Source: Candidatus Thorarchaeota archaeon (GTDB taxonomy: Archaea; Asgardarchaeota; Thorarchaeia; Thorarchaeales; Thorarchaeaceae). From it: a stretch of DNA of 64,000 nt. Position 1 is the stretch's first letter, and every line of letters begins with the position of its first letter. Location of the stretch: the NCBI GenBank assembly GCA_016841005.1, contig JAEORG010000192.1:33865-97864 (forward strand). Direction: 5' to 3'. Positions 29,983 to 32,465 of this stretch are shown here, piece after piece. The notes beneath the pieces were generated by a model. The model was not told the DNA's origin and did not search any database. It saw only the letters and a list, made by a program, of their open reading frames with translations. The translations under genes were made by a program, and so were the position numbers.

Positions 29983-30216
29983 TTGAGCGTGCTTGCTTTC
30001 ATCCTTTTGAACGTCGAAATGGCATCACAGAGAGATGTCCTTGCTAAGATACGAACCCTTGACGAAGTTCAAGAAGCTCATCTAATCTTTGGTACTTATG
30101 ACATAATTGTGAAAGCAGAGTTACCTACAAATCAAGCTCTCAGTTTCTTTGTAGTGGACAAGATTAAGTCAATTCCAGGCGTTGGAGAAACCCTGACAAA
30201 TATCTGTACTAACTGA
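29983..30216 (+). CDS. Stand-alone Lrp/AsnC ligand-binding (RAM) domain protein
   Basis: The 77-residue protein is just the C-terminal domain of Lrp/AsnC regulators: AFILLNVEMASQRDVLAKIRTLDEVQEAHLIFGTYDIIVKAE, ending VGETLTNIC. There is no DNA-binding domain. Such single RAM domains oligomerise and may bind amino acids or modulate partner regulators. It starts at a TTG with GAGGT eight bases upstream, follows the profilin-like genes and converges on a winged-helix regulator. Confidence 0.88.
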   Translation: MSVLAFILLNVEMASQRDVLAKIRTLDEVQEAHLIFGTYDIIVKAELPTNQALSFFVVDKIKSIPGVGETLTNICTN

Positions 30217-30225
30217 GTATGTCTT

Positions 30226-30975
30226 TCATTTGAAAAGGATGTCACGCATCGTTTTGTGAATCTTGATGTACTCATCAGAGCCCATCGCATACATCGTAAC
30301 TAAGAAATCAAACATACTTAGAACATCTTTGTCTGCGACATCGCTTCGGATCATCTTTGCAACTTCAGCTCGTCCCTGTACCTCTTTCTTATAGGCTTCA
30401 AGTCGTAATTGAACTAGTTTCTCTTTCTCTTCGTCTGTGAGGTCTATAGCGAACACCTTGAGCATCCTATCATTGTATTCCTTACTCTTCTTTAGGAGAA
30501 GCTTCTCATCAGCATCAAGGAGTGCAGTAACAAGAACAAAACCCTTTGCTGTTCTTCTATAGTATGTAGTAGTTCTTCCTTCAGTCTTCTCATCTCTTAC
30601 GACTGTGACTTTTCCAATCTCAGCGATATACCCCTGATCTTTGAGTTTTGGTAAATGATGGTATACTTGATTCTTAGTTATTTTCTCAGTGTCCTTATGT
30701 TCCTTGGACATATTGACAATTTCCACTACTGACATCGCATGTCTCTGCACAGTACGAATCAGCTTTACACCTGGCTCTGGATATTCAGTCTTTTTATCCT
30801 CGATACCTCTTCTCATAATTTGCAATATTGCCAATCTTACAGGATCGTCTAATTCTCTCGCTCTCTCTTCATCTGATACAAATTCAAATTCTCTTACGGG
30901 CGGAGCCTCACTAAGTGGTGGTTCCAAATCTTGCAGAGTATCGGTGTCATCATTCCATTCTTCATAGTCGCCCAT
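30226..30975 (-). CDS. Winged-helix (ArsR-like) transcriptional regulator
   Basis: The 249-residue protein has an acidic N-terminal ~40 residues, then a winged-helix domain: DDPVRLAILQIMRRG, VVEIVNMSK, TKNQVYHHLPKLKDQGYI and a wing TEGRTTTYYRRTAKGF. A long helical C-terminal region probably dimerises. It resembles ArsR-type regulators common in Asgard archaea. A GGTGA site lies just before the ATG. Its start is divergent from the microprotein operon, with two identical GGTTT-N7-AAACC dyads in or next to the shared region, making it a candidate regulator of that operon. Confidence 0.8.
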   Translation of the reverse strand: MGDYEEWNDDTDTLQDLEPPLSEAPPVREFEFVSDEERARELDDPVRLAILQIMRRGIEDKKTEYPEPGVKLIRTVQRHAMSVVEIVNMSKEHKDTEKITKNQVYHHLPKLKDQGYIAEIGKVTVVRDEKTEGRTTTYYRRTAKGFVLVTALLDADEKLLLKKSKEYNDRMLKVFAIDLTDEEKEKLVQLRLEAYKKEVQGRAEVAKMIRSDVADKDVLSMFDFLVTMYAMGSDEYIKIHKTMRDILFK

Positions 30976-31091
30976 TAAATCACCAGTCGCGTGCGTTTTC
31001 TGTGTTAAATCACTCCATCCGACATATTAAAGTTTTGTTATCGTATCAATATTCAAATTTCGTTTGCAATTTTAACTTTTTATTATATAAT

Positions 31092-31179
31092 GGTTTACTC
31101 AACAAACCAAAACGACAACCTTATATACATTTGATGTGCATCTTGTACCAAGACTTCTGAAAGGTTTGGACTACAAACC
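31092..31179 (+). promoter_or_regulatory. Microprotein operon promoter with two identical dyad operators
   Basis: GGTTT-N7-AAACC occurs twice with the same 5-7-5 geometry, at 31092-31108 and at 31163-31179. Between them lies a TATA box, TTATATAC (31121-31128). The first dyad is upstream of the TATA box and the second sits within the presumed leader. This arrangement resembles a repressor/activator site pair. The flank 30976-31091 is AT-rich with no gene. Confidence 0.6.
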
Positions 31180-31200
31180 AAGATGAAGCGGTGGTCAACC

Positions 31201-31308
31201 ATGGCGATAGAAAGTAACTCCCGAACCAACACTGTGACGAAGAATAAGAAGACGGCACAGCCGGTATCGACTGTTGCTGTTGGATACGCATACGCTTACA
31301 GGAGGTAA
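31201..31308 (+). CDS. Microprotein 1 of tandem microprotein operon
   Basis: A 35-codon open frame (ATG at 31201, GGTGG six bases upstream; an in-frame ATG at 31183 would add six residues, MKRWST). The product is basic and Thr/Asn/Lys-rich, ending VAVGYAYAYRR. No known family is recognised. Its last codons AGG AGG TAA double as the ribosome site of the next gene. The first of three tightly packed small genes behind a TATA box with flanking dyads. Coding is supported by the ordered gene/ribosome-site array, not by homology. Confidence 0.55.
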   Translation: MAIESNSRTNTVTKNKKTAQPVSTVAVGYAYAYRR

Positions 31309-31314
31309 GATAAC

Positions 31315-31404
31315 ATGGCACTTGCAAAGAAGGATCTCAAGAAGAAAACTCGCAAGCAGATTTCACCAAGAGCTATCCGATACTCATACATTTACAACAG
31401 GTAG
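31315..31404 (+). CDS. Microprotein 2 of tandem microprotein operon
   Basis: A 29-residue, very basic peptide (MALAKKDLKKKTRKQ...) ending AIRYSYIYNR. A perfect GGAGGT lies eight bases upstream of the ATG, the best ribosome site in this region. The C-terminus repeats the alternating Y-x-Y-x-Y pattern of microprotein 1, and the underlying 23 bases differ at only five positions, so the two are likely duplicates at their ends. Unknown function; a nucleic-acid or membrane-surface binding peptide is a guess. Confidence 0.6.
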   Translation: MALAKKDLKKKTRKQISPRAIRYSYIYNR

Positions 31405-31410
31405 ATCGAA

Positions 31411-31530
31411 ATGTCCCGAGATACCCGTTTACTAAGAACACGTATCCGAGGTAATAGTGACATTATCGCGGATAAGACTCATCATCGAGAGATGACAATT
31501 CAGGATATACTCAAACTTGAGGCGACTTAG
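31411..31530 (+). CDS. Microprotein 3 of tandem microprotein operon
   Basis: A 39-residue peptide, MSRDTRLLRTRIRGNSD at its start and EMTIQDILKLEAT at its end: a basic N-terminus and an amphipathic C-terminal helix. It starts six bases after the stop of microprotein 2, whose last AGG may help ribosome binding. The stop codon lies inside a terminator-like hairpin. No homologue is recognised. It differs in composition from the first two and lacks the Tyr-repeat end. Confidence 0.55.
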   Translation: MSRDTRLLRTRIRGNSDIIADKTHHREMTIQDILKLEAT

Positions 31531-31537
31531 TCGCCTC
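31519..31537 (+). terminator. Hairpin at end of microprotein operon
   Basis: GAGGCGAC (31519-31526) pairs perfectly with GTCGCCTC (31530-31537) across a TTA loop; the stop codon of microprotein 3 is in the loop/stem edge. Pyrimidine-rich sequence follows. It probably ends the transcript or protects its 3' end. Confidence 0.6.
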
Positions 31538-31571: not shown

Positions 31572-32465
31572 TCATTTCCTGAAAACAATTTGATAGAATG
31601 TATCGTTCAGGATGTAAGTGACCTCAACATCTTTTGCATTTTCAGGAAGATGTTCTAATGGAGGTCTGGCTTCAAAGAGTTTGTTAGCCTTGATGATTGC
31701 CTTTCCCTCCTCAGTATTCCGTTTCTGGGGTGAGAGACCCTCGTCACTCACGATGACAAAGCCGTCTTTCTTTACAACTCGAAGCATCTCTTCAAATGCC
31801 CGTGGAATGTCTGAGTATGTATTGATCCCTCCGCTATGATTGACAATGTCAAAGAAGTTTTTCTTGTAAGGGATATTGAACACATTGCTCTGCACAAGAC
31901 TTAGCGTCATATTCCTCTCTCTTGCTTTTCTCTTAGATACACGAAGCATTCCTCTTGAAAGGTCAAGCCCATGCAGATTGAATCTACCCATCTTGTCATT
32001 GAATACATTTGCTAGAGCCATGAAATTGGCGGCTGTCCCAATGCTGATATCAAGAATCTTGACAGGGCCCTCTATCGGAATGAATTGTGCAAGACTCTCT
32101 CTACTCTTCATTACGTCAACGCCTAGCCAGTCATCATATTGTTTGACGAGCTCATCATAGTTTTCAGCCATTTCATCATATTCAGATATCCACTTCTGGT
32201 CATCTTCATTTATCGGAGGATGTACAAGTGAAGGAATCCCCTCTGTGATTTGCCAGGTGTGTCCCTTCTCACAAGCAATAATTGCTTCTTCTATCTCGTC
32301 TGATTGCTTAGTGATCGTTGTGAGTCTGAGTTTCTCCTTACACCGTGGACATTGGAGAATATCGAGATGAGGGTTTTGCACGTTATTCACCTCTCTCAGT
32401 TCATCTGCATCATTGGATGCTTTGTTCCTTTTTCTCTCACCATTATCATTTGGTTCATCACTCAT
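31572..32465 (-). CDS. SAM-dependent methyltransferase with N-terminal zinc-ribbon-like (Trm112-type) segment
   Basis: From the ATG at 32465 (GGTGA nine bases upstream) the protein has about 297 residues; the open frame extends further but lacks support. Residues ~36-80 hold LQCPRCKEKL with a later CEKGH, a Trm112-like zinc-binding module followed by GIPSLV. A class I methyltransferase fold follows, with VKILDISIGTAANF in place of the usual glycine-rich loop, GLDLSRGML, and VNHSGGINTY. This looks like archaeal/bacterial ubiE-like methyltransferases that include the YcaR/Trm112 domain in one chain. Substrate unknown. Confidence 0.8.
   Translation of the reverse strand: MSDEPNDNGERKRNKASNDADELREVNNVQNPHLDILQCPRCKEKLRLTTITKQSDEIEEAIIACEKGHTWQITEGIPSLVHPPINEDDQKWISEYDEMAENYDELVKQYDDWLGVDVMKSRESLAQFIPIEGPVKILDISIGTAANFMALANVFNDKMGRFNLHGLDLSRGMLRVSKRKARERNMTLSLVQSNVFNIPYKKNFFDIVNHSGGINTYSDIPRAFEEMLRVVKKDGFVIVSDEGLSPQKRNTEEGKAIIKANKLFEARPPLEHLPENAKDVEVTYILNDTFYQIVFRK

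What the first reader, a model, noticed from the sequence alone, without database searches (positions are those of the whole stretch)
31092..31537. Three-gene microprotein operon with duplicated operator dyads
Between a winged-helix regulator and a methyltransferase gene sits a compact unit. A TATA box is flanked by two identical GGTTT-N7-AAACC dyads (31092-31108 and 31163-31179). Three consecutive tiny genes of 35, 29 and 39 codons follow, with ribosome sites embedded in the preceding stop regions. The unit ends in a perfect 8-bp hairpin that includes the last stop codon. The first two peptides end in the same alternating Tyr pattern (YAYAYRR, YSYIYNR). None resembles a known family. The divergent winged-helix protein at 30226-30975 is the obvious candidate regulator. 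This is the strongest candidate for an undescribed system in the window.
Basis: partly seen in the sequence, partly recalled or inferred. Interest (0 to 1): 0.85.

Follow-up and report, generated by a model that had tools for sequence, protein, structure and literature searches.

The report
Multicopy microprotein operons of Thorarchaeota
A tiny three-gene operon beside a DNA-binding regulator proves to be one of several copies of an unnamed family of very small proteins in Thorarchaeota, an Asgard lineage related to the ancestors of eukaryotes; what the proteins do is unknown.

Summary
The three frames (P1 35, P2 29, P3 39 aa), operators, embedded ribosome sites and terminal hairpin recur divergent from the same winged-helix gene (R1): 29 of 39 loci with upstream sequence, window included, carry recognisable P1-P2-P3. 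P1 and P2 evolve as proteins (dN/dS 0.11 and 0.13 over the last 12 codons); their shared C-terminal tail, A-[IL]-x-Y-A-Y-x-Y-R-R, is the conserved core. The end hairpin is a conserved RNA element. The unit belongs to a family: 44 of 227 genomes of the phylum hold P1/P2 relatives, up to 13 matching frames per genome, 43 of the 44 in one group of 45 handles. Dispersed copies have another operator, AGTCACA-N3-TGTGACT, and in the one genome pair tested evolve in concert. That operator also precedes a bactofilin-like gene. Pfam, NCBIfam, PHROGs and PADLOC do not know the peptides. Best reading: a Thorarchaeota-specific regulon of co-translated microproteins, repressed at these operators and released as stoichiometric effectors, perhaps in an envelope response. 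Existence and conservation are shown; molecular function is inferred and open.

The parts
30226..30975 (-). R1, winged-helix regulator (249 aa), divergent from the operon; PH1932/ArsR-like
   Evidence: relatives in 43 of 227 genomes of the phylum
31083..31090 (-). TATA-like box of the R1 promoter, abutting operator 1
   Evidence: read by eye; inference
31092..31108 (.). operator 1, GGTTTACTCAACAAACC
   Evidence: conserved operator at orthologous loci
31121..31127 (+). TATA box of the microprotein operon
   Evidence: in 27 of 35 loci the best operator is directly followed by a TATA, not so in the window
31163..31179 (.). operator 2, GGTTTGGACTACAAACC (exact GGTTTG-N5-CAAACC), probably just downstream of the transcription start
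31190..31196 (+). Shine-Dalgarno-like site of P1 (GGTGGTC)
   Evidence: inference
31201..31308 (+). P1, 35 aa, tail VGYAYAYRR
31300..31306 (+). Shine-Dalgarno of P2 inside the last codons of P1 (AGGAGGT)
31315..31404 (+). P2, 29 aa, tail AIRYSYIYNR
31399..31402 (+). Shine-Dalgarno core of P3 inside the end of P2 (AGGT)
31411..31530 (+). P3, 39 aa, tail DILKLEAT
31519..31537 (+). hairpin GAGGCGAC-TTA-GTCGCCTC spanning the P3 stop; probable 3' end element
   Evidence: z -3.05 here, z below -2 in 22 of 27 ends; pair covariation on 25 ends of the common register, to which the window does not belong
31572..32465 (-). convergent Zn-ribbon SAM methyltransferase; frequent downstream neighbour (by eye), not part of the unit

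Best explanation
The locus is the resident, regulator-linked copy of a Thorarchaeota-specific multicopy microprotein regulon. Shown by sequence: R1 is divergent from a conserved operon of three co-translated microproteins; operators of form GGTTTG-N5-CAAACC sit at or beside its TATA box; P1 and P2 are related proteins with a conserved C-terminal tail; P3 ends inside a conserved RNA hairpin; further copies elsewhere have another operator and, in the genome pair tested, are homogenised within a genome. Inferred: a dimer of R1 binds the dyads, shuts both divergent promoters by blocking BRE/TATA and the start site, and releases them on a signal; an unidentified factor does the same at the second operator. 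The burst of small proteins (P1, P2 basic; P3 mostly acidic in the family, though +2 in the window) then acts stoichiometrically, the C-terminal tail docking on a common cellular partner or on each other, the variable N-terminal part tuning the copies. Because the second operator also precedes a bactofilin-like gene and an unnamed gene whose predicted protein has a hydrophobic stretch, the response probably concerns the cell envelope or cytoskeleton. The hairpin ends the transcript or protects its 3' end.
For: Conserved order R1, operator, P1-P2-P3 in 29 of 39 loci. Best operator match in the R1-P1 gap: 0 mismatches 13, 1 mismatch 18, 2 mismatches 4 of 35 loci with recognised peptides; at most 2.5% of 200 Markov shuffles do as well in any of them. 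Exact operator at one place in 6 of 10 genomes, 5 of these 6 beside R1. dN/dS 0.11 (P1) and 0.13 (P2) over the last 12 codons; pN/pS 0.97 and 1.25 in the two other frames of P1. Tyr codons TAC and TAT interchange, Phe and His replace Tyr. Arg-Arg kept as AGGCGT, AGGCGG or AGACGC in L079, L084 and L090, where no further recognised peptide follows. Peptides in 44 and R1 in 43 of 227 genomes; 39 have both. Concerted evolution. AGTCACA-type operator before 8 bactofilin genes, all over the Pfam cut-off. Median net charge P1 +4.5, P2 +5, P3 -3.
Against: No transcript, peptide or binding data. GGTTTG operators with up to 1 mismatch are only about twice the reversed-pattern control (68 against 36 forward matches over 7 genomes; in G005 and G213 fewer than the control), and one exact site lies at an MFS/acetyltransferase junction. 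4 of 10 genomes have no exact site. R1 relatives exist without recognised peptides beside them: L001, L015, L040, L041 (L040 has one divergent peptide) and G076. P3 coding selection is weak (dN/dS 0.58 and 0.48 on 13 pairs) with low synonymous change at its end, so part of its conservation is RNA-level. Most Arg-Arg ends are ribosome-site codons, also 13 of 15 counted without a start close by. AlphaFold gives P1 as one low-confidence helix (pLDDT 67, pTM 0.27), so no docking surface can be read. The envelope link rests on two kinds of co-regulated gene. The regulator of the AGTCACA operator is not identified: the MNEY gene next to some copies occurs in 100 of 227 genomes, far beyond the peptides.
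Confidence: 0.5

Rival explanations
1. Nascent-chain sensors. The conserved tail acts in the ribosome exit tunnel: a ribosome pauses at YxYRR-stop on a cue, masks the next gene's ribosome site, and finally decides whether the P3/hairpin end forms. The peptides would be regulatory leaders, not effectors.
For: Only the last 10-13 residues are well conserved and the N-part is freer, as in C-terminal arrest peptides (recalled); stop and next ribosome site overlap; the hairpin 5' arm lies inside P3; 26 of 39 dispersed cassettes have a same-strand gene next.
Against: No constant gene downstream: in the set labelled R1-locus (window, L001-L071, some loci held twice) the next gene is convergent for 53 of 65 cassettes, and the genes after dispersed copies differ. 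Tyr is replaced by Phe, His, Leu or Trp.
Confidence: 0.13
2. Leaderless multi-peptide bacteriocin or signal peptides: short cationic peptides made together and exported.
For: Two related cationic peptides of about 30-35 aa in one operon, multicopy, variable N-part; MFS genes lie near some cassettes (by eye; Pfam for L083).
Against: Few Trp (4 of 52 P1, 6 of 66 P2), no constant transporter or immunity gene seen beside the copies read, presence in nearly all genomes of the group and in-genome homogenisation instead of strain-variable loci.
Confidence: 0.1
3. Mobile or selfish repeat: the operon with its operator and hairpin is a small repeated element spread by copying.
For: In G002 three copies share only about 410 bp, 93-98% identical over the aligned blocks, with unrelated flanks.
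Against: Four positions are orthologous between G002 and G202 while the copies cluster by genome, so old positions are being homogenised; no transposase frame in the 410-bp unit; selection on the peptides (R1-locus copies only).
Confidence: 0.07
4. Nucleic-acid or ribosome-binding small basic proteins (chromatin or hibernation type) made in quantity under stress.
For: P1 and P2 basic, multicopy and concertedly evolving as in some highly expressed genes (recalled), TATA and ribosome sites of good consensus.
Against: No known family at all in Pfam, NCBIfam or PHROGs; the conserved part is the aromatic tail, not the Lys-rich part.
Confidence: 0.15

Closest known systems
Archaeal micro-proteins of Haloferax volcanii, e.g. 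C(P)XCG zinc-finger micro-proteins such as HVO_0758 (PMC10716476, PMC11241148; search listing and start of abstract seen)
   Same: Very small archaeal proteins
   Different: Those named carry C(P)XCG motifs; 0 of the 263 frames here do. I did not read whether any Haloferax ones form multicopy operons
PH1932 of Pyrococcus horikoshii (PDB 1uly, 2cwe), ArsR-like winged-helix protein
   Same: R1: similar fold (Foldseek E 3e-9, TM-score 0.47-0.51 on R1) and sequence relation over residues 104-245 (E 7e-9)
   Different: R1 is longer (249 against about 190 residues); the PH1932 entries carry no tested function in their titles
Prokaryotic genes under concerted evolution (PMC6053082; start of abstract in search listing)
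   Same: Paralogues of one genome more alike than orthologues between genomes
   Different: That abstract speaks of 26 genes by genome-wide analysis; here the unit is a dispersed microprotein operon with its promoter and hairpin
Garvicin KS-type leaderless bacteriocins (recalled)
   Same: Several short cationic related peptides in one operon
   Different: No constant export or immunity neighbours seen and few Trp here

Membership tests
ArsR/PadR-like winged-helix regulators (R1) | winged-helix fold in the predicted structure | tested here: met
   model pLDDT 85, pTM 0.74; best PDB match PH1932, called an ArsR homologue
ArsR/PadR-like winged-helix regulators (R1) | score above the curated cut-off of a named family | tested here: not met
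   Pfam HTH_20, PadR and HTH_5 below cut-off; NCBIfam below cut-off
ArsR/PadR-like winged-helix regulators (R1) | binds its own operator as a dimer | not testable with these tools
   only the conserved dyads
C(P)XCG zinc-finger micro-proteins | C(P)XCG motif | tested here: not met
   0 of 263 frames
Toxin-antitoxin or defence system | match to known components | tested here: not met
   P1-P3 no PADLOC or PHROGs match; R1 only a weak Csa3 match (3.8e-8, residues 34-192)
Leaderless bacteriocin operon | neighbouring transporter or immunity genes constant | tested here: not met
   neighbours vary; at the R1 locus most often a convergent methyltransferase, by eye
Leaderless bacteriocin operon | antimicrobial activity | not testable with these tools
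   needs synthetic peptides
Leader peptide with attenuator | constant regulated gene downstream on the same strand | tested here: not met
   53 of 65 R1-set cassettes face a convergent gene, 11 a same-strand one; 26 of 39 dispersed ones have a same-strand gene, of varied identity
Insertion-type mobile element | positions differ between related genomes | tested here: not met
   four orthologous positions in G002 and G202, the one pair compared; L093 has no partner among the four G202 loci held
Pyrrolysine read-through of P2 into P3 | PylS in the genome | tested here: not met
   0 of 13 genomes over the TIGR02367 cut-off; weak matches in 8 of 13, as in 13 of 14 control genomes

The most novel reading that the evidence does not exclude
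Thorarchaeota use a lineage-wide, multicopy, concertedly evolving system of co-translated microproteins that share one C-terminal docking tail and are switched through two dedicated operators: a new kind of peptide-based stress or envelope control in an Asgard lineage, with several operons acting as interchangeable sources of one tail and many N-terminal variants.
Probability: 0.45. Interest if true: 0.85.

Novelty: categorically new. Interest (0 to 1): 0.75.

Why it matters
The family is present in nearly all sampled genomes of one Asgard group, with several matching frames in most of them, under purifying selection, yet carries no name in the libraries searched. It suggests that genes of 29-39 codons can be core, regulated and homogenised parts of an archaeal genome while annotation passes over them. 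It gives a direct handle: two operators, a candidate regulator, a short tail motif and a co-regulated bactofilin-like gene, all testable in vitro or in a heterologous archaeon. Concerted evolution of a dispersed operon would point to recombination among copies in Asgard genomes.

Tried and rejected
The single-peptide protein search found nothing; the alignment search found 97 proteins at E <= 1, none with a Pfam domain and none named other than hypothetical. Seven of these, 68-70 aa, look like P2 and P3 joined across a stop read as Gln; P0183 equals L029 P2, Q, two residues and P3. PylS was sought in 13 genomes and not found over the cut-off, so read-through is not favoured. Rfam at gathering thresholds: no family in the window. 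Structure of P1: low confidence, not used. A second winged-helix-like gene (MNEY) lies divergent from some dispersed cassettes and was first taken as regulator of the AGTCACA operator; relatives occur in 100 of 227 genomes, so this was dropped. R1 in viral contigs: 62 stretches matched a pattern, none a relative. Mobile-element reading lowered by synteny plus concerted evolution. Leader-attenuator reading lowered by the varied downstream genes. Literature: six searches listed no paper describing such an operon; only listings and starts of abstracts were seen, no paper was opened.

Full report
What is there. The window comes from a Thorarchaeota-like archaeon: the best match of the winged-helix protein is 94% identical and named Candidatus Thorarchaeota. 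At 31092-31537 all the described features are present. P1 starts at 31201 (35 aa, with a Shine-Dalgarno-like GGTGGTC); for the in-frame ATG at 31183 I see none. P2 is 29 aa and P3 39 aa. AGGAGGT and AGGT, the ribosome sites of P2 and P3, overlap the last codons of P1 and P2. Dyad 1 abuts a TATA on the minus strand, dyad 2 lies just beyond the expected start site of the operon, so two bound dimers could close both divergent promoters (inference).

Conservation at the same place. An alignment of 26 R1 sequences found 41 loci in genome contigs. Three (L016, L035, L039) have too little upstream sequence. Of the remaining 38 plus the window, 29 hold recognisable P1, P2 and P3 in order, 6 hold one or two of them, 4 none; L007 and L013, counted as complete, have a changed P3 end. 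The profiles were built from many of these same peptides, so the count describes and does not test. L006 and L133 have four peptides, read by eye, and L040 one divergent peptide. The operator generalises to GGTTTG-N5-CAAACC; in the 35 loci with peptides the best match has 0 (13), 1 (18) or 2 (4) mismatches of 12, and in 27 of 35 it is directly followed by a TATA (the window is one of the 8 exceptions). The exact site occurs at one place in 6 of 10 genomes, 5 of these 6 beside R1, and in 4 of 10 not at all. With one mismatch allowed the excess over the reversed control is small: 68 against 36 in 7 genomes.

They are proteins. Between pairs of R1-locus copies 60-99% identical, dN/dS in the last 12 codons is 0.11 for P1 (50 pairs) and 0.13 for P2 (41 pairs), with 0.52 and 0.27 in the rest; pN/pS of the other two frames of P1 is 0.97 and 1.25. 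The pairs are not independent. Tyr codons interchange freely. The terminal Arg-Arg doubles as the next ribosome site, yet in L079, L084 and L090, where no further recognised peptide follows, it is written AGGCGT, AGGCGG and AGACGC. In L079 and L090 an ATG lies shortly after the stop, in the terminal hairpin, so my script counted those two as having a start nearby; of 15 Arg-Arg ends it counted without one, 13 still use ribosome-site codons. So this point is suggestive only. Of distinct peptides 51 of 52 P1 and 61 of 66 P2 fit a loose A-[ILVM]-x-x-[AS]-[YFHW] pattern near the end; the model that found them was built on this tail, so this is descriptive. P3 is less clear: dN/dS 0.58 and 0.48 on 13 pairs; 37 of 39 end in an EVLxWEAT-like motif.

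The hairpin. A 60-nt stretch at the P3 stop folds with z below -2 in 22 of 27 loci (mean -3.46), against 0 of 27 at the P1 stop and 2 of 27 at the P2 stop. On 25 distinct ends of the common register the named 13-pair stem is formed in 87.4% of cells with a covariation score that 0 of 500 shuffles reach; for pairs with change on both sides 51 of 500 and for further pair types 21 of 500 shuffles do. The window, L002 and L006 use another register. So the EVLxWEAT end of P3 is shaped by RNA and probably protein together.

A multicopy family. P2 and mixed P1/P2 profiles were run on 227 genomes of the phylum. With the mixed profile 44 have a match at E <= 0.01, up to 13 matching frames per genome (P1 and P2 counted separately); three are weak (G192, G008, G191, E 0.001-0.004). 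43 of the 44 are in the group G001-G010 and G192-G226 (45 handles; G194 and G196 missing), the other is G191. R1 relatives occur in 43 of 227; 39 have both, 5 peptides only, 4 R1 only. Of the 4, G194 has a P2 match at 9e-11 and G190 a divergent cassette read by eye; G076 has an R1 relative beside a different gene and no peptides. HMM enumeration in the loci then fetched gave 263 peptide frames in 104 cassettes, some loci held twice. The protein database holds 97 relatives at E <= 1, none named. The window itself has only this one cassette.

A second operator. The dispersed copies shown carry AGTCACA-N3-TGTGACT or a near match upstream of the TATA. The exact site occurs in 33 of 45 genomes, the reversed control in 2 of 45; with one mismatch the shorter GTCACA-N3-TGTGAC has 86 forward matches against 36 control in 7 genomes. 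From the listed exact places I fetched 20 that were not yet in hand: 18 precede a microprotein frame (L104 and L110 cut by the contig end, L111 read by eye) and 2 (L099, L105) a bactofilin gene. Among 20 further places picked from the looser scans, six AGTCACA-type sites precede a bactofilin gene (L116, L118, L124-L127; all over the Pfam cut-off), two an unnamed gene with a hydrophobic stretch and no Pfam family (L122, L128), three microproteins (L121, L130, L131) and two small frames ending in ENLYYEY (L112, L113) read by eye; L119, L120, L123 and L129 show no recognised partner; GGTTTG-type sites stand before a DUF362 gene (L114, L115) and at an MFS/acetyltransferase junction (L117).

Concerted evolution. 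Flank synteny pairs L076 with L095, L077 with L091, L078 with L096 and L092 with L094 between G002 and G202, but the copies cluster by genome with support 1.000: 86-94% within G002, 84-95% within G202, 77-83% between. Position is older than sequence, which fits gene conversion among copies. One genome pair was tested.

Function. Pfam, NCBIfam, PHROGs and PADLOC give nothing for the window's three peptides. R1 resembles PH1932. The most economical reading is a repressed, burst-type production of tail-bearing microproteins from several interchangeable operons. The link to the envelope rests on the bactofilin gene and the unnamed gene. The partner of the tail is unknown. I put 0.5 on this mechanism as a whole, and close to certainty on the family being real and conserved.

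Noticed in passing
window 31402-31416 and orthologous loci: The P2 stop is TAG in 27 of 29 R1-locus operons (P1 8 of 29, P3 2 of 27) and P3 is in frame with P2 in 23 of 27; seven database proteins of 68-70 aa read the stop as Gln. A bulged ribosome-site pairing may explain it; no PylS over the cut-off in 13 genomes.
   Followed up: partly
L121:5480-5640 and L083:730-850: Another conserved frame of about 36 aa (MTLRxTSxKPCL...) behind a GGTTTG-type operator, with a strong GC hairpin after it: perhaps a further microprotein class of the same regulon (read by eye).
   Followed up: no
L099, L105, L116, L118, L124-L127: A bactofilin gene (8 of 8 over the Pfam cut-off) shares the AGTCACA-type promoter; a small HTH_45-like gene lies next to it in several of these loci.
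   Followed up: partly
L082, L097, L100, L101, L104: A conserved protein of about 166 aa (MNEY...), next to a TFIIB-like zinc-ribbon protein in some loci, is divergent from a cassette; relatives in 100 of 227 genomes of the phylum.
   Followed up: partly
window 29998-30216: Stand-alone Lrp/AsnC ligand-binding domain next to R1.
   Followed up: no
L001, L015, L134: R1 relatives divergent from other genes (names by eye: MFS region, fumarate-reductase-like, VWA-like) without microproteins beside them, so R1 may be older than the operon.
   Followed up: partly
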